38,724 nucleotides of DNA, taken from assembly GCA_013115145.1 (NCBI GenBank), contig JAAPAO010000330.1, positions 1 to 38,724 of the forward strand. Reading direction: 5' to 3'. The stretch comes from Perkinsus chesapeaki. Taxonomy: Eukaryota; Perkinsozoa; Perkinsida; Perkinsidae. Within the stretch, counting starts at the first letter, position 1, and the number at the start of each line of letters is the position of its first letter. Positions 3,401-21,200 of this stretch are shown in pieces. The translations under genes and the position numbers were made by a program. The notes beneath the pieces are model-generated. The model was not told the origin of the DNA and made no database searches. It was given only the letters and a program-made list of their open reading frames with translations.

Positions 3401-5244
3401 ATTCACGATGTTCACGATAAATATCAGTAACGGCAAGTATCTGATTAATAACAATCTATTATTGTGGTGATACTATACTGATGAGACATATTCAAATATA
3501 AGCTTAGCAATCAATTTCATAGGTTCGTAGAAAAAGTATAGAAATATAACAATGATATTTTTATTATGTCATAACGATACTTCATATAATTGCGGTCCTA
3601 TTATAATATTCCTCTTTCGTACAAAGCGATGCGTAATTAGCAAACCCATGCTCGGATATGCACAACTGGTGTATATCACAGCCATTTTGATCAGCATTTT
3701 GTACGTTGACCATCTATCACAGATATCGCTTCAGTGTAATAGCGAACAAGTATACTATTACAAATCGTAAATAATATGGTATATAATATGAACTAAATAT
3801 AATCCTAACCTAATATATGACATATACCTAACAGAAATTAAGTAATTTTACAACTTACAGAGTGAAGATGAAACGGATTCTTCTGGAGGAAATATATAAG
3901 GGAGTCAACATCTGATGAAGCAACCTGATAAAAAATATAGGAACCAGGGATCGAACCCGAGACCTTACGATTTCACAGTATGTATCCATGGTCTTCAGGT
4001 AAGAGTTACTCGGTTCCAAATAAAACTGTGTCTTCTTATCACCGCTATCAGCGCTCCCCTCAGAGGCTTCGTGACTGAAAATGGTCAACAATGTTGGAAT
4101 ATAGCCCCATACTCGAACTCGTATTAGTGGTGGAAAATAGAAAATTGCGTTGGTTGTTGAAGCCTCGAGTCCTAGGCACCGTATCATTCTAAGATTCACC
4201 GAGGGGAATTGAAGATTCAACTAAGAAAGGCAGGTGGATATTCATTCCAACATCGACGGATATCCAAGGGTCGCAGGTTCGATCCCGCCACCTTACACTT
4301 TCATAACAAGTGTAGAGTCCTTTACTGCTGCCGGTGTTGGCCACATCTCTTCCTCTTGATTCATCGGCCAATCGTTTAACAGCCAAGAACGTTTCTTCAA
4401 ATTGGCACCGGATCGAGCCGCCGTGGCAGCGCCCATCCCACGCGGACGATTCATAATACGGTTCTGCGAATGTTGCTGAGTGCTGCTGTTTTCGGCTCTG
4501 ACTCGCAGAGAGTAGGCTTCGGAACCGAAAATGCCTGAAGACCATGGTTCGAATCCCACCCAAGGTATTTTGATTTACGTTTTATTTCCGTTTCAGGATT
4601 GAGGTTCCCCTTGGATATCCTCAGCAAGGGATCAGATGATGACGATGGTGAGCTGGGCACATCTGCCGACCATAAAGATTGAGCCGCTGGGATTCGAACC
4701 TGCGCCTACTTTTCTTCTCAGCTTTCTTATTCTTTTTCTTCTGTGGTGGTGGTGGACTTTTCTTCTTCTTCTCCTGCTGCTGCTGTTGCTTGACAGGTTT
4801 CTTAGCCTCCGCTATCAGCTGGGCAGTTTGTGGTGGTGGTGTACTCTCGAGCTCCTCTTCCTCCTCCTCAGAGGACCTGTCGTCTTCTTCTTCCTCATAA
4901 TCACTGTCACTATCCAGTTGTACCGCTGCAAAAACACTCTTATCTGAGGGAAACAAAGGGTGTTCTTAATATTCCGACTTCATCTGTTGGACAGTTACTA
5001 ACTCCGTCTAAGAGACTGCAATAAATATTATTTTCCTACGAACGATCGGTTTGCTCGCCCCTAAGGGCTAGGTATATCTTAATAGTGCAGCTACGCGAAC
5101 GTAAAACGGCGAGAAAGTAACGGTACGTAGATTTGGAGAGATTTCTTCTCCCTCTGAGTCATCCTCGTCAATCACTAGTGTAGACGGCAACTCATCGTCC
5201 TCGCCAGCTAACCGAAGCTGTTTGTTGATTTGACGTCTACTCAT
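452..5244 (-). CDS. TCF25: TCF25/Nulp1 (Rqc1 family) homologue, multi-exon
   Basis: TCF25-family proteins (yeast Rqc1) are ribosome quality-control factors acting with the Ltn1 ligase at stalled 60S subunits. The start MSRRQINKQLRLAGEDDELP lies at 5244. It is followed by an acidic and lysine/glutamine-rich segment (4950-4710), then by family landmarks in the right order: DPLLRISKGNLNPETEIKR and IFGSEAYS (about 4650-4500), FYLEPSNSYLKTMDTYCE (about 4015-3969), LIYFLQKNPFHLHS (3900s), FERAGQLLRRALYVLQCSTH then PLFDPFMES (about 3420-3290), GCTRTALEVFKLLLLMDED (about 2790-2720), MPNFA (about 2160) and LLMAEAYAEKAWQLWKP (about 1480-1430). A terminal exon ends SSSDDNSVAEEIQMD at stop 452-454. At least twelve introns are needed, mostly 31-47 nt; three contain a tRNA-B-box-like core. 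The junction at 2022-2052 is off by one base if read as GT-AG. Exon limits between 600 and 1300 are uncertain. Confidence 0.9.
1502..1528. repeat. Perfect 13-bp inverted repeat
   Basis: GAAGTATCTGCGA and TCGCAGATACTTC are separated by a single A. The ends GTATCT...AGATAC echo the family-3 module. It lies in or next to an intron upstream of the TCF25 exon KFGSIHLLMAEAYAEK. Confidence 0.9.
3925..3968 (-). repeat. 44-nt TCF25 intron with B-box-like core (family 1, sense)
   Basis: It begins GTAAGGTCTCGGG, continues TTCGATCCCTGG and ends TTTTATCAG. Removal joins MDTYCEI to VASSDVDSLIYFL in the family-conserved order. Confidence 0.88.
4535..4578 (-). repeat. 44-nt TCF25 intron with B-box-like core (family 1, antisense)
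   Basis: It begins GTAAATC, contains GTGGGATTCGAACCATGG and ends TCTTCAG. Removal joins NPETEIK to RIFGSEAY, a conserved stretch of the family. Confidence 0.9.
4663..4709 (-). repeat. 47-nt TCF25 intron with B-box-like core (family 1, sense)
   Basis: It begins GTAGGCGCAGGTTCGAATCC and ends GTCGGCAG. Removal joins the lysine-rich segment to VPSSPSSSSDPLLRI. Confidence 0.88.
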
Positions 5245-5478
5245 TTATCAAGTGCACCGGCTGCGATATAAATGATGATATACTAGCCAACACAACTCAT
5301 CACCATGTAATGACGGTATTAATACAATAGTAGATGGTTTATTATTATTAGTAGCACTATAAGATATAATAGCATTATCATCATCAACTAAGATCCGCAG
5401 CAGTAGGAGACCAGTCCTCGTCCGCTATCGATCTGAACATAACATTATGATGATGACCACTTATTTAAAGTAAGGTTG

Positions 5479-8400
5479 CTACTGTTCATCCAGCTCTGGA
5501 TTGGAGAAATCATCGACGCCTCTATCAAGCTCTATGAAATCGGTTAACTCGAATTGTGGAAGACATCGAATACGCTCCTACAAAGCAGAAGTGAAGACTA
5601 CACGTAAAGATGCGCCATCGTCCTACTGAAACTGACGGCAACATTCGCCACAAATCGTGATGCTGCATTTGTTTTGTCCACTCTGCCTCAACCAGCGGTA
5701 TCTAGAGCGCACAACATAACCTGTTATGTATCTTGCAAGGTTGAAGCTAAGATACTTACTGCTTTTGCTTGTAAAGGTGTAACATCCGGTGGTACTTTAA
5801 AGTGATACTCTCTCCTCGGCATCTGTCCAGTCCTAGCCGGCACTGGCATCCGGAATGCAGCCCCCGATGACCCCGCCGATTTAGCGTCGTTTGATGCTGT
5901 GTTGCCGCCACGTAATGAAAGATCCTTAATCACATCGGTGAGTCCATACCTGCTGCCACCACTTCAACAAGCGGTCATCGATTCTACAATTTTCAAATTC
6001 TAGCATTTGCGAAAGTCTAACTTGACCTTGAGCTGGCCCCGGGAGGCAGGGCCGCTTATCCTATCGAAAGCGCCGCCCCTTCGGGAAGATTTACACACAT
6101 TACACACAGGAAATACAATACAAAGTTCTATGACACAGGATACCAAGTCAGTTATTGGTTATTCTTCTATATGCATAATCGATCACCAGGGCGAGCGCTA
6201 TACAGTACAGTACAACAACCCTGCTGGGTACCTACCTGGCTAGTTGCCTAACTACAAGTTCGGTGACAACACATCTCCATTTGTAATAGCCAACTTGATC
6301 ATTGGCACGAGTTGTCGATGCTGATGGGTTCTGCTCGGCTGATGGGGCTGAATCCAGTGGTGGAGGATCTGCGGAGTTAATCGATGATGAGTTAGATGAT
6401 GGAAGGCGGCTTACCAACTAGTGGGCCGACACGGAATAGTAAAAGTAGGATGAAACGCTGCCTTACAAACCATGACCAATGTAACTGATGAGAAGGTTGA
6501 AAAGTGATGACGCGGAAGATAATATTATTGTTACCAAAAGTCTGTCGAAGTGCTTGCCAAGTAAATGATCGGTGACGAGACTCCGGCCACTCATGGTGGA
6601 GACTGGACCGGCGAATAGGCCCCAGTGTTGATAGATCAACCAGAGGACGTTATGGATGTTCCTGGCTATATCACACCTGAAGTAACATATCTTAGGTTCA
6701 AGCGAGGAAGATGCAAAGTAGGTTACTCTAGTAGCATATCGATGCCATGCAACAGGAAGTTCATATCAAAATCTCCTGGAAGTGAAGCATGCCGCACCAG
6801 TAACGATAAGAACAGGAAATGAATCTATACATTGAATTACAATGCAAGCAACTTATCGAAGTAGTACTTACCATTTTCATGGCGCATGCTACAGCCTTCT
6901 GGTTATATATATTGGTACTATGGAACATAATCTATAAAGTTAAGTGGGAGAAGAGCGGTATGAAAGAGTAGCCTTACTTTAACAATACAACTGAGAGTTT
7001 GAGTATTTCTGAGTACGCTAGCCGCACAATCGACGAGAGCATCTGGATAATGGTCTACTCTCTTATGGTACTTCATACAGAGGAACACCTAATAATGACA
7101 AAGATATCAACCTTTTTAGTGTCTTGCACGCTCAACCTCTGGATACTCACCCCCTTCAATAGTGTTCGATATCCCGGGATGTACTTCCATAAATCTGCTA
7201 ACTGATTCTGATCTACAACTACTTCGGAAACGTACCTGCGATGAGAGAATCGTTAGGTTGACCTTGCAAGATACGGAACACGTCAGATTGGAATCTGCTT
7301 ACTTGCACCAACATTTAACGAACAATAAGAACGTAGTCTTCCTCTTTCTCATTCTTGTCCGCCATAAGCTCTTCTCGCCAATTAATGAATGTACTTGAAT
7401 CTGAGCCCAAAAATATCTTCTAAGATACCCCCGTCGACCTCCCGACCTGCAGTAATCTGCGTTTAACTCTCACCCATCCATGTTCGGTCAGCCCAAAGTA
7501 TTCACTAAAATGTCACAAAAAATCAGCACGCATGCACATGAAGATACTCCCTACTTGAGACCACTATGGAACTCAGTTAAATCGAATAACAACTGGATGT
7601 CTCTCGCCTGTGGGACCCACTGGCGGTTACTATGTAACGACGCACGCATAAGGCTATACCTACAAAACAGACACGTATCTTCAGGTTGACCATGCAAGAT
7701 ACGAAATAGGTTCGGTTGCAGCCTTACGAGCTCCCTCTCCATTCAGCTATATCCATATCCTCCTCCTCTTTAGTAAGCAAGCATGCTGCTACTGTCTGAC
7801 CCAACTCCGGTACCAAGAAATATAATCTGTCCGACGCACTTTCTCATTTAAAAGTATTCCGAGAGTCCTCTAACCTGGCGTATAGCATCGGTATCATATC
7901 AGGGCTGACCTCATAGAGGTTGTATGCTCTTCTACCGGAATCAATAGTCCTCAAGGCGAATACTGCTAAGGTGTATCTAAACAGGTAATATACTACTCCA
8001 GTGCTAGAATCCACGACTTGGAATCTTCCCAAATCTGGCTCGAATCTCAGTTGCAGCAGTTCACAAAACATGTTCCCGATGAAACTAAGGGGAACTGTCA
8101 GGCCTTGAAACCTCCCATCGTCAATACCGAATTCTCACAACATAGGAAGCCAATATACCACAGATCTCTCGAGCCGCTTATCGGTGGCGGGGGTTGTGGC
8201 GAATTTCTTACATTGTATCTTGCCATCGTCTGCAACACTTCATTCTCGTCTCAAACCATTCCAACGCTGCAATTTGGGAATCATCCAAATACCCTGGCTC
8301 ACCAGGCTCTGGTAAAGCTGAAAGGTAGGTTTGAAGGTAAAGTTGGTATGATGCACGCATGCGCATTACTTCCATTGGATTTCATCTCTTGGTATTTCAG

Positions 8401-10193
8401 CAGATCCTGACGTGCTTCAACATGTGATGTGTAACAAGTCGGTGGTGGAGGAAGTTGCGACAATGCCCTGGAAAACAAAAAATATCTTTTTAGTTATGAA
8501 AATGCCGAGTCAACCTAAAGATACCCCCATCTTACTCGAGTTCTCCTCGAACTATCAAAGCTTGCAATAGTCGGCAATAGGCCTGCTGCAAACCCCATTG
8601 AATTCCACCTAAAATACAAAACATGAATCGCTTCGCTCCGCCCAGACAAACAGAATTCCCTATTCCACAACAAACATACAATACCACTTCAAGTCGTGGT
8701 AGCTCTGCAGCTGTCTTAGCGCCTTCCAATTGCAAAATTACCAATACGGTCGTTTTCTTGAATTTCTTACTACTTCACGAGATTTCCCCGAAGCAACACT
8801 TCAGATGTAGTTGACGGCGGTTCCCTCACACTACTACTAAAAGTATCACAATTCTCACATGAGTTCAAAGGTAAACAGCGCTCGCCGAGTTGATCGATTA
8901 TCATTACTGTTGGTAATAATGAGTTGTTGGCTTACCAGTTGTATAGGATAACATTGCTACTGCTTGATGTATTAAATCCATCATCATCCCTTGGGCTTTG
9001 AGAAGTATCCTATCGCTACTGTATATGAAGGACTTCATTGACTGCTTTTCTGAGCAAAACATATTTAATTGAGTTATACTGTGGAATAGGTCGTAAGTTA
9101 CGAACTATTCCGCATTGTAACGAGTCCTAGCTGAACAATTTCGAGAGCACCACCACGCACAGGTGAAGTCTCGAGAATACCAAATTCTGCAGTTAAAGTG
9201 CTACTGCAGTAAATTAATCCGAACTACAGATACATCAGTGTGAGAGTAACTAAGCCGAGTCACGGCTGAGTGAAGGCACACACACTTTACTAGTGAGAAA
9301 CATGACCATTACTAATAATCAAACATGCTTAAAGCGACCAGCTTTATCTATAGGATTGTATTATTTCTGTCTTACCAGAGACACTTAGAGCATCAGTTAG
9401 CTCAAGTACGAGTTTCTCAGTCTTCTGACTTTCACCAAATGGTTTTGTTTCATTAGGACTTAATAATCGTTCGCTTAAATAGAACACCCTCCTCAGTTTA
9501 TCAGGCATCCTCTTCAGGGCAGCCTGAGCGAATTATTCCGATTCTGTGAATATTTTACTCATCTTACATCGTCCGTCGGGCTCTGACTGCCTGTAATCGT
9601 TCTCCCTGGACGCTCATCTCTCACAATCGCTGAGGTCCTCGCTATAAAGCCATTACCGATATGGACCTGCCATCAAATTAGCAATGATGTATATCAGCCC
9701 ATTCCAGAGATAGGGGTTAATATAAACATATGAATTCAATTACCCCAGCGGCGAGCTGTCTGTATCGAGGCATCGCTGTAATGCGGAAATGCATAGTCAA
9801 TAAACCAACATGCCGACCATGATTCCACAACTTCTGAGTCATAGTTCCTAAAAACGATCAGATGGCTCATTCGTATCTTGCACGGGGAAGCTAAAGATAT
9901 TCTTACTCTCAATGAACGGCGGGGACACAGCCGATCTTCCCTGATTGGAGGTGGACTGGTCAGAGTCGGAGTTGGCCGAGCTTATGGCGTTCCTGCCCCA
10001 TTCATTAACCTCGTATATCTTAGCAAGAGGAATCTGAAAAGTATCCAAAGGTTAACCATGCAAGATACAAAATATGTTAGCTTACCCATGTTTCGCCTCG
10101 GAACTTAACCCTTTTATCAGGCGCTAGATTGCTAGAGGAATAGAGTCGCAATAAGACTGATTCTGTACGCAAGTACGTCATACTCGTTTTCAT
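5479..10193 (-). CDS. Large unidentified multi-exon gene, helical protein
   Basis: The start ATG at 10193 reads MKTSMTYLRTESVLLRLYSS and joins in frame, across a 52-nt intron (10034-10085), to IPLAKIYEVNEWGRN. Further coding blocks are SWSACWFIDYAFPHYSDAS (about 9800), VHIGNGFIARTSAIVRDERP (about 9640), RMPDKLRRVFYLSERLLSPN (about 9500), LEGAKTAAELPRLEVVLYVC (about 8720), YLSALPEPGEPGYLDDSQIA (about 8300), MFCELLQLRFEPDLG (about 8060), LYEVSPDMIPMLYARLEDSR (about 7900), REYHFKVPPDVTPLQAKAV (about 5800) and a last exon ending DDFSNPELDEQ at stop 5479-5481. The content is mostly helical, suggestive of a HEAT or karyopherin-like solenoid, but no family signature was recognised. It is exceptionally rich in introns with the GTATCTT...AAGATAC module. 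A single gene is inferred; two adjacent genes are possible. Confidence 0.5.
5728..5755. repeat. Family-3 intron module, full copy
   Basis: A 28-bp imperfect palindrome runs from GTATCTTGCA through AGGTTGAAGCT to AAGATAC. On the minus strand it lies directly behind a GTAA donor that ends the exon coding LQAKAVSILAS, so it forms the 5' part of an intron of the gene ending at 5479. Confidence 0.75.
7675..7702. repeat. Family-3 intron module, full copy
   Basis: It begins GTATCTT, has CAGGTTGACCA in the middle and ends TGCAAGATAC. It has the same ends and length as the copies at 5728, 9873, 10041 and 14848. It sits in a stretch of the minus-strand gene that lacks a convincing exon. Confidence 0.7.
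9873..9900. repeat. Family-3 intron module inside a 59-nt intron
   Basis: The module GTATCTTGCA...AAAGATAT lies just inside the GTAAG donor that follows the exon coding GRSAVSPPFIE on the minus strand. The intron ends at TTTTTAG before NYDSEVVESW, and the reading frame is kept. Confidence 0.75.
10034..10085 (-). repeat. 52-nt intron built around a family-3 module
   Basis: The donor is at 10085 and the acceptor TTTTCAG ends at 10034. The module occupies 10041-10068 (GTATCC...AAGATAC on plus). It splits codon-exactly between the exon ending KFRGETW and the exon starting IPLAKIYEV. Confidence 0.75.
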
Positions 10194-10431
10194 ACACACC
10201 AACGGTAACTGAAAGATACAAAACAGGTTGAATTGAATAACAATAGGAAACGACAAAATAAATTAATTAAGATACTTTAAAGTAATACAACCGGCATCAC
10301 CGGGCAAGAGATAATGCCACAATACGATAACTAGTGATGATAGAAGAAAACTTAAGATTTGTTAAGATTTCGTTATAATTTACAGTGAAGGTATCTACTA
10401 TATTAATCATTCAGATTCATTTTCTCCAACA

Positions 10432-11291
10432 TTACTCTGCCTCTCCCTTCCCAAGGCCATCTACCTGTCCGTCTGTATTCTCCCATACTGGTTCCTGCAC
10501 ACATGGTGTCCACGTCGAGAACAGATTTCCCGGGAACACATGATCACTGAGTTGATCCAATGATTGAGGTATTGGACCAGCTGGCGAGTCTGGCAAAGTG
10601 GGAGGTGGTGGCGCTGGGGTTTGGGGACTGAATAATAGAAGTCAATATGGTCCATCGATAATAACCTTTGTTCCTAATTCCATGGTCAACAACTGGCTAT
10701 AACTACCCTCCAGACGTTGACATGCGAGTACGGTGTAGAATTCATTTGATTATAATTTACAACTCCCCTTCACTGGTGTGCAGATATATATCTACATTAT
10801 ATATTTATTTATATCACATAAGTAATCATACCAGATAATTCGAATCAACTAAGACAGAATTGATTCCACAATTGCGACCAGATTTGTCATTAACTCACAT
10901 GAACACCCCAACGCTTACTATGAAGTCAAGCCGGTTATATTATACGCAAGCATATAGTGTCGTCCAGTATGTTGGCTCCCCTCCACTAAATCACGAGTTC
11001 CATCAAATACAAGCGATGGTGCCTCTCCTGGTTGCTCCGGTACAAGCTCATTAGAAGCAATATATGACGGTCCTGAAAAAATGCCTCCACCAGGATTCGA
11101 ACCGGCGACCATTCGATTACCCATCGCCGAATCATCATCATACGGAGGTGTTGCAACCTCGGGATATCCTTCATGACCGCTACCTGCTGGAGAGTTTCGT
11201 GGCGCACGAAAATTTAGGACTTACCGAAATCAACTGCTGCTTCTTGTGTCTGCAAATATATCTTTCCTTGTTGTGCCATTTTAATACTCAT
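10432..11291 (-). CDS. Small unidentified proline-rich protein, multi-exon
   Basis: It starts at 11291 (MSIKMAQQGKIYLQTQEAAV) or at the in-frame ATG 11279. A 41-nt intron (11184-11224) leads to SGHEGYPEVATPPYDDDS, and a 48-nt intron (11073-11120) leads to GPSYIASNELVPEQPGEAPS. Both junctions keep frame. A later exon is rich in proline and ends HVFPGNLFSTWTPCVQEPVW then NTDGQVDGLGKGEAE at stop 10432-10434. The exon between about 10930 and 10660 is not resolved. No family is recognised. The two introns belong to two different repeated intron families, one carrying the TTCGTGGCGC hairpin and one a tRNA-B-box-like core. Confidence 0.55.
11073..11120 (-). repeat. 48-nt intron with B-box-like core (family 1, sense)
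   Basis: It begins GTAATCG, contains CCGGTTCGAATCCTGG and ends TTTTTTCAG. The core matches the tRNA T arm/B box. Frame is kept between DDDSAM and GPSYIAS. Confidence 0.8.
11184..11224 (-). repeat. 41-nt intron with TTCGTGGCGC hairpin (family 2, antisense)
   Basis: On the plus strand the core is TTTCGTGGCGCACGAAA, a near-perfect hairpin. In gene orientation the intron begins GTAAGTCC and ends CAGCAG, and frame is kept between AAVDFG and SGHEGYP. Confidence 0.8.
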
Positions 11292-11748
11292 CACCAACCG
11301 GCTTGAACCTAAGATACCCCTTGAAAATCTTCATGGTGCGGAAGTTCAATACGTAACGCTATAAGGATAATAAATACCACGGATGGCACCGATGCAGCAC
11401 GTAATGGTTGGGAAAAGACCCCACGTGAGTTTCCTCAGGCAATCTTATAGACAAAGATACGGTTATTAAGATAATGTAATCTAACTGGATGCTTATGGAT
11501 GCAAATGACAGGTAAGCAGTCTTCTTCTTCTTCTTGCATGTTTATTATTATATATTAAACCTCTCAAGCAGTAGAGTACTAATACTATCAAATATATCTA
11601 CAATCTCTATTACATACCATTAATACTCAGTAAACTATAAATAGTTCTATGAGCAAACATTATTATTAACAAATATGATATACATGATGACTGTCCAAGT
11701 CATTATATAATATATTACTAGCCATAGATATCAATACTAGTATTGAAG

Positions 11749-13179
11749 TTAGATATCATAATACCCGTGCCCTCCCAACCTACCAACACCACTTTCAGCC
11801 AGCTTTGCCGATTGCGTCATCTTCACATCCTCCTCCTCGGCCTTCTTCTGCACATCAGTATTATGTTCATGATGGTTCAAATGATCATGTCCATCATCAT
11901 CCACTTCTGACAGTGGTGGCTCCAATGCTATATCGTGGTGCATGGGCCCAGTAGCTATCGTCAGCATCGATACTTTTACTGTCCCTCTACAACATTCCGT
12001 ACCTTCTGGTAGCTTTTGTATTACCTGTGAACAAAGGTAACAAAGAATTATATAATATTATAAAAATGCCTCCTAATGAATTATCATATATATAACATAC
12101 TAAAGTGCTGTATCTATACTCCCTATTATCGACTACTAGTTCACATGGTAGAAAAGATCATAGAGAGTTCAATCTTTCTACTAGGAAATCCTTCAAATTC
12201 GCATTCTAGGGAGAATTCCAGTGATACTGGCATACGATAAATATGATGAATGTAACCTATCAATGATAGGCTAGTATCATTTGCCAACTCTACTCATAAA
12301 CCCGCCGCCGCTGACATTTAAAAGGCCCATGAGTTTCATATTTCCCAAAGCCCCCTCACGAATGTACCCTAAGCGTCCCTTGACCAATCCTTACATCCAC
12401 TTTAACGAACTTCCCTGCAATTCCACGATGATTATTTGGACTTGGTTCATAATGCCACTTAAACCTTATAGGTTCAGATGTCCACTGTGGATCAGCTGAC
12501 CATCGCCAGCCAGTCTCATATACCGTACCTTACATAAACAAAGATATCGAACTAGCTATATTATATTCCTCACAAGTTAAATATGAGCAATTGAAATTTA
12601 GAAATTTTACGGATAGGCCAGCGTTGGCGAATGGATCGAAGATGCAGCTTCTAGGAAAGTGCCAAGTGTTTCACTGAAATGCTCGGTGAGTGAATATATC
12701 ATTCACACAATAACGACACCACCTCACGAGGAGAACTTATATGAAAAAATCAAGTCGATATGAGCATGCCTGGCGTAGGGACACCAAACGGGTGCTTTAT
12801 GCACAACCTTAAATGGAGGCGGCGGCGACGGGATTGATGCTCTTTCTAACTTACGCGTTAATACTTTGAATGATATGAAATGATAACAAAGAGGAAATTG
12901 ACAAACCCTTTCGCTCAAGAACTACGGTACGGTTTCTCATCTACATCTACCCAGTTCCTTACAACCAGCAATTTCAATTGCTCGTCACATTGGCTACACT
13001 TAATATTTGGCGAAGCCGAAAATACACAACATACGCAAAAGATTTCTAGGTTTTTCTGTGCACAATAATTTTCCCGTATAAACAGCAAAGATACCCCATT
13101 ATCGCACTGTAAAGATTTATTATTACCAGCCCAACATATCCTGAGCTTGGTTGACATCCTCTCCGGCAATGATCGACAT
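11749..13179 (-). CDS. Unidentified multi-exon gene
   Basis: The tentative start is at 13179 (MSIIAGEDVNQAQDMLG, with an in-frame stop upstream). Coding blocks further along are RKLERASIPSPPPPFKVVHK (about 12830), PQWTSEPIRFKWHYEPSPNN (about 12450), GYIREGALGNMKLMGLLNVS (about 12340), VSLEFSLECEFEGFPSRKIE (about 12210), VIQKLPEGTECCRGTVKVS (about 12000) and a histidine- and acid-rich tail ending RLGGHGYYDI at stop 11749-11751. A 26-nt intron (12369-12394) joins FVKVD to GYIREGA in frame. I could not resolve all junctions between 12600 and 13100, and two genes are possible. The beta-strand-like middle part could be a B9/C2-type fold, but no diagnostic motif is visible. Confidence 0.4.
12369..12394 (-). 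other. 26-nt intron
   Basis: It begins GTAAGGATTGG and ends CGCTTAG on the minus strand. Removing it joins GKFVKVD to GYIREGALG in one frame; retaining it shifts the frame. Confidence 0.6.
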
Positions 13180-13433
13180 TGCATATTAAATATCCTCACA
13201 ACAAAGTCAGCTGAACCATCAATGGATTGCTTATCGACATGATTCGGGGAGAAAGGGTCATAGGTTCGATCCACCCCGAAGTCTAATCTAAATACAATAA
13301 AACATATTGAATAGAGAGTACTATTGAAGTGGCTAACTACAGCAAGACTACCGCCTAGGTATGCCAAAAGATAGACAATTTTATTCAAAAAGTTCCTCGG
13401 CGATCACACTGCTCGAACAGTATAATAATATAT

Positions 13434-15675
13434 TCATAAAATGCAATCATCAATTGAATACCTATGACTTAAACTATCGCGCCTGGCATGCCAGCAGGCA
13501 ACAATAACAAAGAATCGAACCAGGGTCGTTTGCATGCCAATCCACCATCCTAACCAGCTTACGTATTAGTATCTCGTGGTATATGTTGTTGTTGCTGTTG
13601 TCCTCCAGCTGCCTTACTGGACCCTGGCCCTCCACGTTTATTATTACCAGCTCCCGACGGCCCTCCTGAGGACGGATCATTAAGCTGATGACCTGCCGCT
13701 TTCAATACAGCAGATGCAATCGAATTGACATCTACGTAGCCATTAAAGATTATTAATACATCCAAAATACATTATTACTACCTTTGGATTGAGTAGACCT
13801 TGCGCACCCCATATCTCTATTAGGGGTGCTGCCTTTACTACTGATACTGTTATTTGACGACAAGGCTAAATCGGGGTGTTGAAAGCTTTCTCTTGAATGA
13901 TGCACAGCGGCTGCAGTAGGCTTCACTGTATTAGTTTCTCCTCTGTTTATTCCCTCTTCCGAGTGTATTCCAAAGACTTTTAGGAAAGTGTCCTTTAAAG
14001 CTCGAAAACAGGAACGGCACGATAGAATCTCCGACGGTGACGACGACAACTTATCGGCAAACCCTGCTGCTGCTGCTAGTCAAAAAATCCAAACCAAAAA
14101 AGAGACGCTCTCTTCTTTTGGTTTCTGCGATAAATCCCTGACTTCTCCTGGTCCCGTTGACGAGGAGATGAAGGAATTGAATAGCGAACTGAAGTAAGCG
14201 TAGTTGATCACAGGTTAACCTACTTTGGATCTTGCACGCATCAACCTATGATACCAAGCTGAACGCAACTCATCAGATATAGAGACTGTGTATAACGAAT
14301 TTATTGCATGCTCCGAAAATATAACTCATCAGGATGGTCTCCAAGTAGACGTTGTCGGGATCTTGCAAGCTTCAACATATGGTCCAAGCTAAACGCAACT
14401 CAGCTCAATTGAGGAAACTATGTGTAAGTAATTTCTTGCATGGTCCGACTACAGTAACCATCACGTTGGTCCCCGAGTTGTCCTCCTTGGGAGCTTGCAA
14501 GCTCAACCTCAAGATACCCTTCCCTCTCGCCGGGCAATCCACACCACATTCTCTCCTCGAACAAACAAAAACGGCGCGCGCCACGAAATCCGTTCACTTC
14601 GATCCGGTCTGGCCTGGGAAAGTCTTGTTGAAAATATTTTCCGACACTGCCCACCGTAACGTCCTTCAAGATGATGTTGAATTCCTTATCAAATAAAACA
14701 AGTAAACCATCGATCAGCTCCAACTGCATCGCTCCGCCTTCTTTATCCCATTTTAGCAGAACCCGAACCATCTCATTATCCGATACACATTCCTTAAGTA
14801 ACGATAAAGGACCATTACGGACATTCTCAGGCACTCGGTGAAACTGACTATCTTAGGTTGAAGCTAGCAAGATGCACAATAGGTCAAGCTACTACCTCTG
14901 GTACTATCTGTTCATCTTTACCTATCATTATATCATCTTGTCCTTTATATTGACACTTAACCATTGCCACACTATAGTTTCGACACCCTGTCTCTATACC
15001 ATGTAATACCCTAACACAGTTCATCAAACTGTTGAGCGACCAAAAAGCTCTGGACCTCCCTCCACAGCGAAGCCCAACGGAGGGCCCTCTTGAGACATAA
15101 TACAGAACAGGCCCTTCCCAGTGAAATGTCCTCGCTACTTAGTGATCACTCAGCAATGCCATCGACTATGCCGTACATCATACACCAGCAATGCGGTCAA
15201 AAAAACCTCAATAACGAACTTCACATTTCTCTATACCAAATTATTATCCAAATGACAATAATATTCGTAGTAGTATATAAATGTCTGGTAATGCCCATGC
15301 CTTCCCCTTCAAACATTACCTTCTCATTTCCTGCCGTCGCCTCTTATCCTCCCCTCGTGCCAGCTTTGGAGCCTCCTTCTGCACCTCCTCCTTATTACCA
15401 TCCATTATTCCAGCCTTAGCTACTATGACCGGTAGAGTGGATGTCGAGGAAGACGACGACGAGGCCCCTGAAGCATCGATAAAGCAGTAATACATTCGAC
15501 CAGACACATACTCCTCGTGGGCATCCCCAACGGTTTGGCTATATCCTTCCTGACTTCTGGCGGTAACTTGTACCTCGACAGAACTGCACTGTTAAGATTT
15601 ATTCCGCAATGAGTAGGGCTAGTTTCCCCTCCACATTGTTAATCGTTGCCTATACCCTCCCGAGACATCCCTCAT
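13434..15675 (-). CDS. Sm/Lsm-domain protein, possibly Lsm11-like
   Basis: The start ATG at 15675 (MRDVSGGYRQRL) joins over a 46-nt intron to SRYKLPPEVRKDIAKPLGMP, then over a 44-nt intron (15468-15511) to a serine-rich and basic stretch. The core exon (about 14843-14600) reads VPENVRNGPLSLLKEC, then GLLVLFDKEFNIILKDVTV, matching the Sm1 pattern of Lsm proteins with the FDK..N...DV signature. A 47-nt intron (14551-14597) leads to NVVWIARREG, resembling the Sm2 segment after a long insertion as in Lsm11 of the U7 snRNP. The protein may stop at 14509-14511. Alternatively a 329-nt intron (14189-14517) continues in frame to FAIQFLHLLVNGTRRSQGF and a Ser/Gln-rich tail ending RYSIDDCIL at 13434. 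I prefer the longer model because the downstream exons otherwise lack a start. The part between 14950 and 15319 is not fully resolved. Confidence 0.55.
13483..13562 (-). repeat. 80-nt intron resembling a tRNA without its first bases
   Basis: On the minus strand it opens GTAAGCTGGTTAGGATGG (D-arm-like), continues through a GCATGC-centred anticodon-arm-like part to CTGGTTCGATTC (T-arm-like), and ends ATGCCAG. Removing it joins HIPRDTNT to RDSLSHRY in frame. Confidence 0.55.
14189..14517 (-). repeat. 131-bp tandem repeat, about 2.2 diverged units
   Basis: Repeat anchors (ATCTTGCA.GC.TCAACAT/CT) start at 14229, 14360 and 14492, giving periods of 131 and 132. Each unit also shares CCAAGCT.AACGCAACTC and TTGCATG.TCCGA blocks. 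The unit boundary is a copy of the family-3 module (on minus, GTATCTTGAGGTTGAGC then TTGCAAGC). The array fills a stretch bounded by a GTATCTT donor at 14517 and a CTTCAG acceptor at 14189, so it may be one long intron. Confidence 0.75.
14551..14597 (-). repeat. 47-nt intron with TTCGTGGCGC core (family 2, sense)
   Basis: On the minus strand it begins GTGAACGG, contains ATTTCGTGGCGCGCGCC and ends GAGAG. It lies between FPRPDRIE and NVVWIARRE of the Lsm-like gene. Confidence 0.55.
14848..14875. repeat. Family-3 intron module before a splice acceptor
   Basis: CTATCTTAGGTTGAAGCT followed by AGCAAGATGC. On minus it ends just before the TCAG acceptor of the exon that starts FHRVPENVRNG. Confidence 0.7.
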
Positions 15676-16882
15676 TTCCTATCACTGCCAAGCAACAAAG
15701 ATGACTTATACATCTTTACCAACTCGGTCTTCGTCGTAGCAAGCGAGTTGGAGTGGGGCGTCAACACTTCAACCCCACAGTAGACAGGCGTCACACCGAT
15801 GATGCCAAAGCCGTGTTTTGCCATGAACAGCTCGTATTTCTCGGAAAACACTATTTTACGTAATAATAATTTTTTATAAATACCTTCGATAAACTTCGAC
15901 AGCTTTCCAGAATCTGTCCTTAATAAGCTTAGAATCATTATGGAAATATAAGACAAAAATATGTAACGGGACGACGCCTGTTCGATGCCACAATAGTACG
16001 TTTAGAAAGGGAGATAATCAACAGTTATTTACCCTACAAGGATGATGGGGGAATTCAAGTCAACCTAAAAAATATCTTATTATTACCACTTGATCAGACT
16101 CTTCATCTCCGGTGAATCCAAATCAAATCTCGAGCTGCTGGACATTATGATGAAGGTCGCAAAGTTGAGCTAAAGAATATCTTATCGCACTCGGCAGGAT
16201 ACCTCCTCCAACACAACACTATGAGACAGCAAATGCAAAGACGAACCATCGTATCCGAGCTTGATGCGCGTAGGATACAAAAAAGGTCAAGTTGCAAACT
16301 CGGGCGTCATGCAATAGACCAATGTTACTTTGCGAATTTTCGTATTTACATGATAAAAAGTATTAGGGTAACCCAGAATTATTGACAATGATGAAAGGCT
16401 ATCTCAGAAAGTATCTTAGCTCTAACCAAGACTTTCGTAGGGAAATAAGATACTTTTGAGGTCAATAAGCAATGCTAATCGGTGGAGGCAAGAATATTGG
16501 CCGCTGGCGAGCGGTCGAATCAGACTTCCTCTGTGGTATGTATGGACCGAATAAACCAATACGCACCTGATGGGATTCGAACCATGAGCCTCCTCCTCCT
16601 TAAGACAATGGTCTTATCCATTACACCGCATTACCCGCTGTTTCCTAGGAGGCCTCCTTCGAACCTCCGCTGCCTGTTCTCTGTCCTTCTTTTCTGCCGC
16701 TTCCTTCTCAGCTGCTAATCGTTTGGCTCTTGCCTTCAAGAAATCTTTAAAAGGACCGACCTGACCAACGTATTTCGCACTCGGAAGAATTTAAGATACC
16801 ACCTACATGACGTAACACTAATGTCCACGTAAGATACCAATTAAGTGCCACCAACAGCAAAACCTACAGCAACCAATACCAT
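15672..16882 (-). CDS. Unidentified protein, hydrophobic N-terminus plus charged helix
   Basis: The start at 16882 reads MVLVAVGFA, a short hydrophobic segment that may be a membrane anchor. It is followed after an intron by a strongly charged helix (GPFKDFLKARAKRLAAEKEA then AEKKDREQAAEVRRRPPRKQ). After the tRNA-like intron 16531-16634 come SDSTARQRPIFLPPP, then LGYDGSSLHLLSHSVVLEE (about 16250), SSRFDLDSPEMKSLIKW (about 16110), and across a 33-nt intron GKLSKFIE joins VFSEKYELFMAKHGFGIIG (about 15900-15830). The stop is at 15672-15674 and overlaps the downstream start in ATGA. A stop in frame near 16469 must be skipped by splicing, which I did not resolve. Introns here repeatedly hold family-3 modules (16064, 16163, 16267, 16410). 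No family is recognised. Confidence 0.45.
16531..16634 (-). repeat. 104-nt intron containing a degenerate tRNA-like sequence
   Basis: Read on minus it starts GTAATGCGGTGTAATGGAT (A-box/D-arm-like), then an arm with CATTGTCTTAAGG, then CATGGTTCGAATCCCATC (B box), then an acceptor-like CAGGTGC. The T stem lacks one G and the acceptor halves do not pair, so a functional tRNA is unlikely. Splicing it out joins RRPPRKQR to RKSDSTARQ. Confidence 0.7.
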
Positions 16883-17376
16883 GAAAAATTATTTGATTAT
16901 TACTATTATAGTCGATACAACGATCATAATAGGATAGGACACTGCAGACCAGAACTGATAGAGAATGGGTATGCTTGCATTGATAGTGTCAATAGCAGTG
17001 GTAAACAATATTATAGCATTATTCAACATCTACTCGAAAGCCTTTCCAATACAGCCCATCTCTTAACACGGTTTAGTTACCAACTATTCATAAAGTTATA
17101 TCCAATCACCATTGAGCAACGTCCCACAAGAAGGTGCAAAACTAACGGAAATTTCAGAAAAATTATTGGAATTTTGCAGTGTATGAAATAAATGATAATT
17201 TTACAAACAGTAGAATGTCTTCTGATCATTAAATGTATCGACATTCAACAAGTTGATTTAAATCCTCAAAGTAACCTTGTGGGAATATCTTCTGACAGTA
17301 TACTTTCGGGCGCGCGCTTTCTATTCGATCTCAGGGACAATTAGCCAAATTATAGTGAGGATTAACTTGAGCTGAT
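16883..17376. promoter_or_regulatory. Divergent intergenic region
   Basis: It lies between the minus-strand start at 16882 and the MORN5 start at 17377, so it should hold both promoters. It is AT-rich with many ATTATT/AATAAT runs. No TATA box, initiator or conserved element could be assigned, and no convincing exon is present, although an upstream MORN5 exon could be hidden here. Confidence 0.4.
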
Positions 17377-17968
17377 ATGACTGATAAAAACGGATGGAAG
17401 GAAGGGGAAGGGGAATACACCTTTCCTAATGGTACCATGTAATAACGTAACAATTTCGTGGCGAGTGACGCTGATATATATAGATATCGCGGACATTTCG
17501 TAAACGATGAGTTTGACGGTGAAGGGTCGCTCATTTTTCCGGATGGAGGGACATTTGTTGGCACATGGCAAAGAGGGATAGCAGTTGATGGGAAGTAGGC
17601 TCCTTAAGCTCTTTTTTATCTTACTTGCTTCAACCTTAGATATTTCTTCGGTGATGGTTTGGAATATAAAGACAGTAATTGGGAATACATTGTCAGCAAC
17701 GATAGAAGGTTTTACAGCGAAGTTACGGGTGGCATTCGACCTGCTGGGGAATCTTTCGTCACTAATGATAGCACGGATGAACCTAAGATTCCCCGAGGTC
17801 AAGTTCACTGACCTCTTAATTTCCGTTATTTCAACTACAGGTTGTTTCGACCTCGGTAATGGGTACTATGATCCATCCAAGCGCGTAATATTCGACTATA
17901 ATGGAACCCAAGTTATTGGCAAACCAAATGAAGTGGAGCAGAAATGGATTAAGGAGAATGCTAGGTAA
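17377..17968 (+). CDS. MORN5: MORN repeat-containing protein 5 homologue
   Basis: MORN5 is a small conserved protein associated with motile cilia and sperm flagella. Four exons (17377-17438, 17484-17594, 17640-17797, 17841-17968) give 152 residues; human MORN5 has about 160. MORN repeats read GEGEYTFPNGTIYRGHFVND and GEGSLIFPDGGTFVGTWQRG. They are followed by DGKYFFGDGLEYKDSNWEY and the family's C-terminal signature DRRFYSEVTGGIRPAGESF with IPRGCFDLGNGYYDPSKRVI. The three introns are 45, 45 and 43 nt; the first carries the family-2 core. The N-terminus is about ten residues shorter than usual, so an upstream exon may be missing. The ATG chosen is preceded in frame by a stop. The start of the Doa10-type gene follows 293 bp downstream on the same strand. 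Confidence 0.92.
17439..17483 (+). repeat. MORN5 intron 1, 45 nt (family 2)
   Basis: It begins GTAATAACG, contains AATTTCGTGGCGAGTGACG and ends ATATATAG. The frame on both sides is fixed by the MORN repeats. Confidence 0.85.
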
Positions 17969-18261
17969 TAAATCAATAGTAAATCCTCCCTTAAAAAATG
18001 CTATTGTAAATTATCATATATTTCTATATGGAAGTGCTTTAGATTTTCGAAAATACTGACCGCTCTTTCGAAACGCGGAATAATGTTCGCATTTATTTGG
18101 TCCGAGTTGAAAACGTATGTCATGTATCCCTCCAAGATCAAGACATGTTGTACGTTTTCTGTTGTAGGATGTCCTTCAAGTGACTCCATCTCCTTGTTGT
18201 TGTTGATGTTGATGTTGTGTTTAGTATTCCCTATCATCATTATTAATAGTGTATTATCACA

Positions 18262-21200
18262 ATGAACGTCGAATCACCATCATCATCATCATCTCGAAGG
18301 TCCCTATCAGACGCCTCAGATATCCCTACAGTAGAGGACACTGCAAGCGTAGTTACCAATGCATTCGAGGCTCCTAGCATTGATAGCATCCGAGATAGCA
18401 GTATGTCATTCGATGAGCACTCCGACCCAGGCTCGCTCAGCCGTGATAATGCTGAAGAAGCAGCAGCAGCTTCGAATACGAGGGATGCCACTCCTCCTCC
18501 TGCGGCTGCTGCCTCTGCTGCTGTCGAGTCTAATGATGTGCCAATGTGTCGTATATGCGGACTTGGTACAGAGGAAGGGCCATTATACCATCCATGTAGA
18601 TGTTCTGGTAGTATAGCTTATGTACATGAACAATGCTTAAGGAGATGGCTTACTATGAGACGTAATAAGAACGGGAGGAGGATGATGATGAGGGGGCTTC
18701 TATCTCTTTATACTACGAAAAGCTCATGAATATATAACAAATGGTAAATGTTCAGTATGAATAACCCGTCTCTAAGGGGGTAAATTTCAGATATGATTGT
18801 TAAGATCATAGTTGACGAACTCAGAATATGCGGCGACCATCTCTTGTTAAGTGACGGCGGTGGCTTCCCTCTCCTTACATTTGTTATATCTCCGACCCTC
18901 CCAAGTGTGGTGTGACAGCTGCTGCTCAAACGACGCTACGCTTTGGTTAATATCAAATTCATCATACAAAATACAAAAACACATTCCAGAAATCATTATT
19001 GACATTTTAGGAGATATTTCGGTGTAGTATTATTGCACTTTAATCCCGTCTATGATAGATTACAGGATCCTATACTAATCTGCCGTGCCTTTCTCGGTCA
19101 TCACCGAACAATCGTAGAGGATACGTTCTCCAACCTTACGCAATACGATTGTATTTCTTCGCCTCCGTATATATTATTCTATCGTTCATATTGGTGAAGG
19201 TCAGTCGAACTTAGTTAATGTTTTTACTGTGTGTGTGGCAGTTTGCTGTGCCCAATAAGATCTGATTCTGTCATTCGATCAATAAAGGGGGTTAATCATC
19301 CTCGTTGGAAAGCTGTAAATGTTGAGGAAAAGTATATTACCTGGTGAAGGCCAGTCGATAGGAGTACCTGTTCCGGACAATCTTAGTTCAATTTGTTGAA
19401 TGTCGCATCTTATGTCGATCCGAGGATTACTTATCTGATAGGTACGGGTCATACAGAGCAGGAGGATGAAGGCACATTTGTGTTGGAGAATCAACGCTGT
19501 GAACTCTGCGGCCACAAATTCTCATTTCGTGTTGTGTAATGGCGGGATCAAACCCGGGACCTTTCGGTTACTCTGAAATGGTTAGGTACGCCGCCAATGC
19601 GCCAAGTCGGCTTCCTTTGACATACGTTCTCTCCGAGACTTGGAAGTTTCTGGTATCGTTCATAAAGAAATGTCTTCGGCCTTTGTATGCCGTAACGATC
19701 TGGCTGGTACCCTAGCACAAATTCGTGGCGCAGTGACGAATTGTGTCAGGTGTTATTGCCTCTAGTCTCTGTGGCTATACTCGTCGATATTTTTGGCGTC
19801 ATCGATGGTTTTCCTGATCACCTTCAAATGTAGCAGAGACAATTTCGTGGCGCAGTGACGATTTCCTTTGCAGATATGGGTTCATTCTTGGCCCTAGTTC
19901 GTCACCAGTATCATCTGTACCATGGCTTTCAATGTTTTTACGGAAGGGAATGGTCCCTATTCTATGCTGCGGTATCGTCATATCCTTATGTGGCTTCGGC
20001 CTCCTACAATTATGGTTGCATATGCGTGTTGCAGCGGTCCCTATGGTAGTGCCTACTGATGCTGGTGACGATAGGCCACGAGTGGTTCAAAGACGAAGGG
20101 CAACAACACCAGCAACAACAACGACAACAACGGCGACAGCGGCGGCGACAGCGGCAGGGGGAACTGGGGAAGGTACGCCGGCGAATGGAGGGGAAGCCGA
20201 GGCTGCTGCGGCTGCTGCTCCGGAGGAAGCTGAGATAGAAGTTGGTCTAGAAAGTAGGATAGTTGTTGAGGAGGGCTTGGATGATGAAGATGGTGATGTT
20301 ATTAGATTTGCTTGGATTGGAGGGAAGTCTTGGGCCATCCATCTCTACATGGTTTGTTATGTTGTATGCTAACACTATAGCAATGTTGGCACTCATTGTT
20401 GTGCCCTATTATATAGGTAATATTAGCATCGCTTTAGTCTAACAGGGGAAGGGCCTTGCCTTATATCCAATTGGGCCCCGGTTCTATCCCTTGTCATGTC
20501 ATGTAGGTCGCTTCCTTTATGTTCATCTCTTCCCGTCCACACTAGCCTACTCTCCGATACAGTAATATCTCCTGGGTCTCTCCCTCCAGTCACAGTACCT
20601 CACTTCAGTACCGTATCGGCCATCACTCAATCGCCAGCAGTATCGGTCACATCCACAACAACATCATCAGTGTTGGCAACTAAGCTGTGGAAGTATACCT
20701 CAGCACTTTGGGGTGATGAAGATGCTATTAACAATAGAGCAGAGTGTGTGGTGGCTCCAACAGTCCTTCAACCTGTTATACCAGTAAGAAGTCTACGGCA
20801 TAAGAAGAAGAAGCCTCTTCTTGTTGTTGGGATGTCTAATAACCTGTTCGCATAGATGTTGAATACGAAAGCTACGTAAATACTGAGTAAGGTCTTCGTA
20901 CAGGATGTTTTTCGAATCCAGCGAATTTCCGTTTCACATTTTCGCGCAGCCTCATGTGCAGAGATAGAAGTTATTCAATACAGACTTTTGAGGGGGGGCT
21001 CATAAATGAAGTTGGTAGGCCAGTATTCATCATAGCATAATGATAAGCAGTACCACCGAAAGGTTAATAATAAACATGTTATTAAATAAAGATAGTATCA
21101 TAGGTCAGTATATTACCAACCATATTAGCTTTTTATAATACTAAATGTTATTGGTAATAATAATTATTAATTATCACCAGTAGCATCCTGTCTGCCTCCT

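What the first reader, a model, noticed from the sequence alone, without database searches (positions are those of the whole stretch)
3925..19585. Introns of unrelated genes share a tRNA T-arm/B-box-like core
Five introns of 44-50 nt, with frames fixed by the flanking protein, carry the core GGTTCGA.TCC or its reverse complement: 3925-3968, 4535-4578, 4663-4709 (TCF25), 11073-11120 (unidentified gene) and 19536-19585 (Doa10-type). Others are likely at the donors at 4296 and 13562 and in 16531-16634. The core sits a few bases behind the donor in either orientation. Conserved interior sequence in different genes means recent common origin, as for introner elements; the tRNA-like core suggests descent from tRNA 3' ends or a tRNA-derived SINE. 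Introners are known from several protists; a tRNA-like class is, as far as I know, not well described. That last point is inference.
Basis: partly seen in the sequence, partly recalled or inferred. Interest (0 to 1): 0.9.

Follow-up and report, generated by a model that had tools for sequence, protein, structure and literature searches.

The report
tRNA-like introns scattered through Perkinsus genes
In the clam parasite Perkinsus chesapeaki, short introns of unrelated genes carry the same tRNA-like sequence, and several other repeated motifs recur in its introns too; the likely reason is that small tRNA-derived elements inserted into genes and are now spliced out as introns.

Summary
The window is a whole contig of Perkinsus chesapeaki. 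Spliced alignment to Perkinsus orthologues confirms four T-arm introns in TCF25 and one, plus a diverged copy, in the Doa10-type gene; 11073-11120 rests only on splice motifs and family membership. The exact core occurs 368 times, against 8 for the reversed pattern, real tRNA genes included. A profile trained on other contigs finds 8 copies here (0.25 expected): 5 in introns and 0 in exons of the two verified genes.

The tRNA likeness is real. Conservation runs from tRNA position 44 to 73 plus TTTT, and 7 of 62 copies keep an A box near tRNA register. But these are not recent tRNA copies: the T-stem is unpaired, no parent tRNA was found, there are no target-site duplications, and the core diverges about 3-5% per site against 16-60% in conserved flank positions.

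Three further motif families occur in protein-verified introns; others are as abundant but unplaced. Best reading: tRNA-derived, introner-like elements with a B box under constraint. Insertion, mobility and splicing of individual copies remain inferred; no RNA-seq or sister genome was available.

The parts
3925..3968 (-). TCF25 intron, T-arm/B-box element in sense: GTAAGGTCTCGGGTTCGATCCC...ATTTTTTATCAG
   Evidence: Spliced alignment to P0121 and P0122; profile hit 31.8 bits, trained on other contigs
4075..4296 (-). TCF25 intron (222 nt) with the element antisense right behind the donor (element 4267-4301, + strand)
   Evidence: Spliced alignment to P0121 and P0122; profile hit 27.1 bits
4535..4578 (-). 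TCF25 intron, element antisense (element 4537-4571, + strand)
   Evidence: Spliced alignment to P0121 and P0122; profile hit 31.6 bits
4663..4709 (-). TCF25 intron, element in sense directly behind the donor (GTAGGCGCAGGTTCGAATCC)
   Evidence: Spliced alignment to P0121 and P0122; profile hit 33.4 bits
11073..11120 (-). Predicted intron of an unidentified gene, element in sense, ends GGCATTTTTTCAG
   Evidence: Ab initio model picks these borders; strongest profile hit 38.2 bits; own-tRNA covariance model E 0.0009. Not homology-verified; unspliced reading also stays open
16531..16634 (-). Predicted 104-nt intron holding a nearly full-length tRNA-like sequence (16568-16635) with A box near register and B box
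   Evidence: GT/AG; own-tRNA model E 0.06; A-box 12.1 bits at offset -42; profile 22.1 bits. Not homology-verified
13483..13562 (-). Candidate 80-nt intron with A-box-like GCTGGTTAGGAT and diverged B box GGTTCGATTCT
   Evidence: GT/AG, weak joined frame; A-box 8.1 bits at offset -40; own-tRNA model E 9.4. Not verified
13254..13288 (+). Element copy with one core mismatch (GGTTCGATCCA); gene context unresolved
   Evidence: Profile 18.3 bits; A-box-like 6.2 bits at offset -40
19536..19585 (+). Intron of the Doa10-type gene, diverged element antisense (GGTTTGATCCC on minus strand)
   Evidence: Spliced alignment to P0124 and P0123; below the held-out profile threshold, 12.7 bits
20417..20506 (+). 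90-nt intron of the Doa10-type gene, diverged tRNA-length sequence (20428-20498), core GGTTCTATCCC in sense
   Evidence: Spliced alignment to P0124 and P0123; profile 16.3 bits; own-tRNA model only E 7.4
455..5244 (-). TCF25 gene (host of four T-arm introns)
   Evidence: 785 of 785 residues of P0121 spanned
17377..23726 (+). MORN/RING-CH (Doa10-type) gene region, host of T-arm, family c, family f and family b introns
   Evidence: P0123 = FOL47_005976 of P. chesapeaki from a 38,724-nt contig, and P. olseni P0124
17439..17483 (+). Family c intron (TTTCGTGGCG)
19707..19749 (+). Family c intron (ATTCGTGGCGCAGTGACGAAT)
   Evidence: missed by the held-out family c profile
19830..19873 (+). Family c intron (TTTCGTGGCGCAGTGACGA)
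21738..21784 (+). Family c intron (ATCGTGGCGCGTGACG)
22202..22267 (+). Family f intron (GCACGCATGCACA)
17595..17639 (+). Family b intron (TATCTT..TTGCTTCAACCTTAG)
   Evidence: (borders from P0123; the P. olseni alignment is ambiguous here)
22410..22451 (+). Family b intron (CTTCAACCGTGCAAGATAC)

Best explanation
A family of short introns in Perkinsus chesapeaki carries a tRNA 3'-end motif (variable loop AGGTC, B box GGTTCGAATCC, discriminator A and a T tract), and these introns likely arose when small tRNA-derived, Pol III-type elements inserted into genes in either orientation and were then removed by the spliceosome. Shown: the motif is repeated genome-wide; in two verified genes it lies in introns and not in exons, three copies sense and three antisense; its roughly 35 nt fill most of the four 44-50-nt introns among these six (the other two are 90 and 222 nt); a minority of copies keep an A box near tRNA spacing. 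Inferred: in sense copies the T tract would supply the pyrimidine-rich stretch before AG and a GT(A)AGGTC-like stretch would help as the donor; in antisense copies GTAAAATGCC-type starts would give the donor. Inferred: full-length (about 73-nt) tRNA-like elements are the parent form and the short introns are 5'-truncated or shrunken copies. Inferred: the B box stays nearly invariant because it is needed, either for the element's own Pol III transcription and spread or for TFIIIC binding.
For: Introns real: TCF25, two orthologues; Doa10-type, orthologue and own annotation. Abundance: 368 vs 8, 1735 vs 148, real tRNA genes included; 75 profile hits of 12 bits or more in 238,724 bases vs 1.0 in simulations, but 24 of the 75 lie at exact cores for which loci were chosen, and training copies and real tRNAs are included. 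Held-out: 8 window hits vs 0.25 expected; 5 intron, 0 exon in verified genes. tRNA likeness: column profile -8..+25; the first TTTT starts at +22 (tRNA position 74) in 19 of the 28 copies with a TTTT (58 examined); longest match of the consensus to own tRNAs 16 nt, not reached in 300 shuffles, while the other families reach 6-10 nt; own-tRNA covariance model: window copies rank 1, 2, 3, 5, 7, 10, 13 and 17 of 18, though only the first two have E below 0.1, and a full-length match in L032 (20.6 bits). A box: 7 of 13 hits of 5 bits or more fall at offsets -42 to -39 out of 76 offsets, 0.7 expected; I set these bounds; at the exact offsets of real short-arm tRNAs (-41, -40) it is 5 of 13 (62 copies, 4 of them window copies with a core mismatch that I added, 2 of which are among the 7). 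Further motif families in verified introns.
Against: No T-stem pairing beyond shuffles, and no T-stem pair among the 14 most dependent column pairs. No parent tRNA found. No target-site duplication (23 distinct introns, mean repeat 1.87 vs 1.88 cross-pair; 58 copies) and no terminal inverted repeat. ARAGORN and Rfam call no tRNA in the window. No empty site: no second copy of either host gene in the assembly, apart from one weak RING-domain match for the second. Core conserved far better than flanks, which plain decay after insertion does not predict. No RNA-seq and no sister genome, so gain of even one intron is not shown. ORF avoidance is weak or absent: cores lie in ORFs of at least 70, 100 and 150 aa in 34, 16 and 4 of 39 cases, where these cover 76%, 47% and 22% of bases.
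Confidence: 0.55

Rival explanations
1. The B box is a selected DNA element inside pre-existing introns: TFIIIC docks there without Pol III (like extra-TFIIIC sites), and the tRNA-like surroundings are the extended binding site. No insertion is involved.
For: Core divergence is only about 3-5% per site while conserved flank positions differ at 16-60%; both orientations relative to the gene occur (three and three of six verified introns), as for a DNA-binding site; T-stem pairing not kept, so an RNA fold is not what is conserved.
Against: Discriminator A plus T tract at tRNA spacing, and an A box near register in 7 of 62 copies, are ancestry marks that a bare B box does not need. Other, unrelated motif families sit in introns in the same way. 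Convergent origin of a 20-nt motif in so many introns is unlikely.
Confidence: 0.17
2. A single introner family of DNA-transposon (MITE) type whose sequence resembles a tRNA end by chance or by capture of a tRNA fragment.
For: Introners with several families per genome, part of them without TSDs or TIRs, are known (PMC9860276, passages); some excess similarity between copies (variance 8.0 vs 5.7 in column shuffles).
Against: No inverted or direct repeats; the consensus shares 16 nt with own tRNAs; positions 66-69 on the acceptor side are nearly random while both sides of them are conserved.
Confidence: 0.13
3. Ordinary tRNA genes or recent tRNA pseudogenes that happen to be nested in introns.
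For: A few copies are nearly full length with A and B box (L032 4684-4756, window 16568-16635).
Against: No tRNA called by ARAGORN or Rfam in the window; T-stems unpaired; four of the six verified T-arm introns, at 44-50 nt, are too short for a tRNA.
Confidence: 0.08
4. Not introns: the segments are retained or are mis-read coding sequence.
For: 11073-11120 is a multiple of three and reads open unspliced; no RNA-seq was available.
Against: Six T-arm introns are required by alignment to orthologues. P. marinus introns found by comparing cDNA with genome have GT/AG borders and are mostly under 100 bp, from 39 bp (PMC3101222, passages).
Confidence: 0.03

Closest known systems
Introners / introner-like elements (Micromonas, Aureococcus, 175 genomes in Gozashti et al. 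2022, PMC9860276; passages read)
   Same: Many similar short introns in unrelated genes, several families per genome, some known families lack TSDs and TIRs
   Different: Here one family has a tRNA 3'-end and B-box signature; the words Perkinsus, tRNA and SINE do not occur in the main text of that paper (supplement not available)
Introner elements of Amoebophrya (PMC7789003; passages read)
   Same: Parasitic myzozoan relative with invasive repeated introns
   Different: Those are defined by 8-20-nt inverted repeats and 3-5-nt direct repeats, mostly among introns with non-canonical borders; here no such repeats in the T-arm family and borders are GT/AG
tRNA-derived SINEs and 5'-truncated tRNA retropseudogenes (recalled, not from a call)
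   Same: A and B boxes, Pol III terminator, 3' end kept and 5' end often lost
   Different: No TSDs, no LINE partner sought, conserved element only about 33-35 nt, T-stem not kept
Extra-TFIIIC (ETC) sites (papers seen only in a search listing)
   Same: B box without a Pol III gene
   Different: Here with discriminator A and T tract at tRNA spacing, inside introns, in high number; no occupancy data

Membership tests
Introner-like elements | Similar sequences make up introns of unrelated genes | tested here: met
   the motif fills most of the 44-50-nt introns among the verified ones
Introner-like elements | Copy creates a new intron (presence/absence between relatives or alleles) | not testable with these tools
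   No sister genome held; no second copy of the host genes
Introner-like elements | Efficiently spliced | tested here: inconclusive
   Reading frames of orthologues require removal; no RNA-seq
Introner-like elements | TSD or TIR (present in only part of known families) | tested here: not met
   T-arm family only; not a required feature
tRNA-derived SINE | A box and B box at tRNA spacing | tested here: inconclusive
   Met only in a minority: 7 of 62 copies near register, 5 of 62 at the exact offsets of real short-arm tRNAs
tRNA-derived SINE | Target-site duplications | tested here: not met
tRNA-derived SINE | Tail shared with a partner LINE | not tested
   No LINE was sought
tRNA gene | Cloverleaf with paired T-stem, anticodon arm | tested here: not met
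TFIIIC/ETC site | B-box consensus | tested here: met
   (the B-box consensus itself is recalled)
TFIIIC/ETC site | TFIIIC occupancy without Pol III | not testable with these tools
   Needs ChIP data

The most novel reading that the evidence does not exclude
A tRNA-derived class of introners: Pol III-type elements spread through genes as ready-made introns, because the tRNA 3' end already holds a GTAGGTC donor-like stretch and a terminator T tract next to which any AG becomes an acceptor; the B box stays invariant since TFIIIC must bind it, so a thousand or more protein-gene introns double as TFIIIC sites.
Probability: 0.3. Interest if true: 0.87.

Novelty: new variant of a known kind. Interest (0 to 1): 0.7.

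Why it matters
Where new introns come from is a long-standing question. Most known introner families show at least one mark of DNA transposition (PMC9860276, passages). A tRNA-derived class would give a simple route by which a Pol III transcript unit can become an intron, and would link the Pol III machinery to intron gain. The Perkinsus genomes (P. chesapeaki, P. olseni, P. marinus) make the claim directly testable by comparing orthologous introns.

Tried and rejected
Recent copies of functional tRNA genes: rejected by unpaired T-stems and lack of parents. A MITE with TIR or TSD: nothing found (one search cut the last base of two introns by an indexing slip, corrected). T-arm RNA structure under selection: no covariation seen. 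A longer source repeat: all-against-all blastn of 58 flanked copies showed similarity ending near -15..+28, apart from overlapping windows, L032/L041 (49 nt, 80%) and one 29-nt match away from the core (L066/L070). Families c, d, f, b, g, h as tRNA pieces: only c had a marginal match (10 nt, P 0.02 before correction for eight consensus strings). Ab initio gene models: the first self-training diverged and the second merged neighbouring genes, so I rely on orthologue alignment; one search stopped on a script error and was rerun. A local frame score separates T-arm positions from random ones only weakly (medians 20.6 vs 17.9). Empty-site paralogues: none. Papers: ten searches; no title or abstract start listed there was on a tRNA-derived introner or on introners in Perkinsus, but the library holds open-licence papers only.
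Full report
What the window is. The window is a complete 38,724-nt contig (C258) of a 35.4-Mb, 884-contig assembly. A protein frame from contig C19 is identical to a P. chesapeaki protein on a 72,278-nt contig, the length of C19. An annotated P. chesapeaki protein, FOL47_005976, comes from a 38,724-nt contig and matches this window without a mismatch in 1,184 aligned residues. The organism is therefore Perkinsus chesapeaki.

Are the introns real? I wrote a protein-to-genome aligner with GT-AG introns. With TCF25 of P. marinus (P0121) and P. olseni (P0122) it returns 3925-3968, 4535-4578, 4663-4709 and a 222-nt intron 4075-4296, each with matching residues on both sides, for example SYLKTMDTYCEI|VASSDVDSLIYF against SYLKSMDTYCEI|VASSDVDSLIYF. 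With P. olseni P0124 and the species' own annotation P0123 it returns 19536-19585 and a 90-nt intron 20417-20506. Some other introns in these alignments are ambiguous (TCF25 around 3190-3854 and 2275-2678; the second gene around 17557-17639 and 18147-18249), and I draw nothing on the T-arm family from them.

Is the motif more than chance? The loose 11-mer is not striking in the window. The full motif is: a profile from 52 copies on other contigs finds 8 window copies where 0.25 are expected; 5 lie in verified-gene introns and none in exons. With all seven motif families the count is 11 intron to 1 exon, the exon hit being a borderline family h match; family profiles other than T rest on 3 to 22 training copies. 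In the sampled 238,724 bases the T profile built from all 58 copies has 75 hits of 12 bits or more against 1.0 in simulations; these include the training copies, real tRNAs and 24 hits at exact cores for which loci were chosen. Genome-wide counts are 368 vs 8 for GGTTCGAATCC, 1735 vs 148 for GGTTCGANYCC and 1877 vs 287 for GGTTCGANNCC. Real tRNA genes are part of this: 13 of the 44 exact sites I fetched. The non-tRNA share is thus of the order of a thousand copies or more, an extrapolation.

What the motif is. Sixty-two sequences outside called tRNA genes (one turned out to be an end-cut tRNA and three are reverse readings of palindromic cores; 58 remain for later tests) give the consensus AGGTCGCR-GGTTCGAATCC-CRGnnnnGGCA-TTTT; from -30 to -9 no base exceeds 47%. 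This is tRNA positions 44 to 73 followed by a Pol III-like T tract (tRNA numbering and the terminator are recalled). The first TTTT begins at position 74 in 19 of the 28 copies that hold one. The consensus shares 16 nt with the genome's own tRNAs, a length no shuffle reached in 300. A covariance model from 23 own tRNAs ranks window copies 1, 2, 3, 5, 7, 10, 13 and 17 of 18 hits, of which only the first two have E below 0.1. Seven of 62 copies have an A-box match of 5 bits or more at offsets -42 to -39; 6 such matches occur over the other 72 offsets. I set that range after seeing the list; real tRNAs sit at -41 and -40 (-50 in those with a long variable arm), and at -41 and -40 alone the count is 5 of 13. 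These copies include candidate introns long enough for a whole tRNA (window 16531-16634, 13483-13562; L032). tRNA ancestry is therefore well supported.

What it is not. The T-stem pairs 51-63, 50-64 and 49-65 form in 28, 27 and 20 of 58 copies, the shuffled values being 30.6, 25.1 and 23.7. None of these pairs is among the 14 most dependent column pairs, most of which are neighbours on one side of the core. The acceptor side matches no known tRNA better than random draws from the profile do (27 tRNA ends known, from 8 of 20 amino acids). So these are not recent tRNA copies. Neither are they uniformly old copies of one element. Genome-wide the excess of one-mismatch cores is about 430 (reversed control) to about 780 (my scaling of the control by the Markov ratio), against about 1,590 exact ones; that is roughly 3-5% divergence per core site, while the conserved flank positions depart from consensus in 16-60% of copies. 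Real tRNA genes inflate the exact count, so the core figure is approximate. Constraint on the B box, or repeated passage through functional copies, is the natural reading.

How it likely works (inferred unless marked). In the 12 sense rows the donor lies 3 to 25 nt before the core, so at or near the AGGTC stretch in several, and in 9 of the 12 the acceptor lies 14-22 nt behind the core, that is, at or shortly after the T-tract positions (for example GTAAGAAAGGTCG...ATTTTTAG in L045 and GTAATCG...GGCATTTTTTCAG at 11073). In some antisense copies the donor abuts the reversed T tract (GTAAAATGCC in L038, GTAAAAAATGCC in L070). Most borders are predicted by frame and splice motif, not by orthologues. 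A tRNA 3' end thus needs little to become a short spliceable intron. I commit to insertion of tRNA-derived elements, probability 0.55. No target-site duplication or inverted repeat was found, so the insertion chemistry is open.

Wider context. The T-arm class is not alone. Introns of the same Doa10-type gene carry motif c at 17439-17483, 19707-19749, 19830-19873 and 21738-21784, motif f at 22202-22267, and motif b at 17595-17639 and 22410-22451. Motif c (TTTCGTGGCGC) occurs 700 times vs 5, motif d (GCTTCGCTCCGC) 781 vs 2 and motif f (GCACGCATGCRCA) 571 vs 2. Motifs d, g and h were not seen in verified introns, so their placement is open. This multi-family pattern is what introner genomes show: Gozashti et al. 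report one to 43 families per genome and that part of the families lack TSDs and TIRs (PMC9860276, passages read). Amoebophrya, a related parasite, has introners with inverted and direct repeats (PMC7789003, passages read), unlike these. For P. marinus, introns found by comparing cDNA with genome are GT/AG, 39 to 1622 bp, mostly under 100 bp (PMC3101222, passages read). My ten searches listed no paper on introners in Perkinsus or on tRNA-derived introners (listings only).

Verdict. Observation confirmed; interpretation partly supported. A tRNA-derived, B-box-conserving class of introner-like introns in a genome with several such motif families is a new variant of a known kind. Intron gain, splicing of individual copies and the role of the B box remain to be shown.

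Noticed in passing
window 17439-17483, 19707-19749, 19830-19873, 21738-21784; genome-wide: Motif family c (TTTCGTGGCGC..) in four introns of one gene; 700 exact cores vs 5 for the reversed pattern.
   Followed up: partly
window 8623-8650, 14719-14746, 30347-30374; genome-wide: Motif family d (GCTTCGCTCCGC), 781 vs 2 genome-wide; not yet placed in a verified intron.
   Followed up: partly
window 5712-5753, 6689-6730, 7103-7144, 7677-7718, 10043-10084, 14211-14252, 14850-14891, 17600-17641, 22419-22460: Motif family b (GTATCTTGCAAGGTTGAA..AAGATAC, palindromic ends), 13 hits in this window by a profile from only 3 copies in the other loci: it may be locally amplified.
   Followed up: partly
window 6159-6203, 8873-8917; L047 6023, L021 1538: Motif family g (ATAATCGATCA..GGGCGAGCGCT), with perfect palindromic versions ATAATCGATCACGTGATCGATTAT.
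   Followed up: no
L047 7289, 4127, 7167; L049 381; L039 4886: Motif family h (GAGCGTTGAGGAAATGCAAGATTGCAAGATTTTA), in two of these directly behind a GTAA donor-like start.
   Followed up: no
window 18608-18661: The database annotation FOL47_005976 (P0123) skips this exon, which codes SIAYVHEQCLRRWLTMR; P. olseni keeps it, and the RING-CH Pfam domain is listed for P0124 but not for P0123.
   Followed up: partly
window 18662-19441: A 780-nt intron between two halves of the RING-CH domain, much longer than its neighbours.
   Followed up: no
L043 about 3350-3780: A 21-nt tandem array (GGAGCCTCAGTGGTCTCGTAG) next to a run of N.
   Followed up: no
C440, C328, C376, C317: Many near-identical tRNA-Arg(TCT) genes, some clustered on C440.
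   Followed up: no
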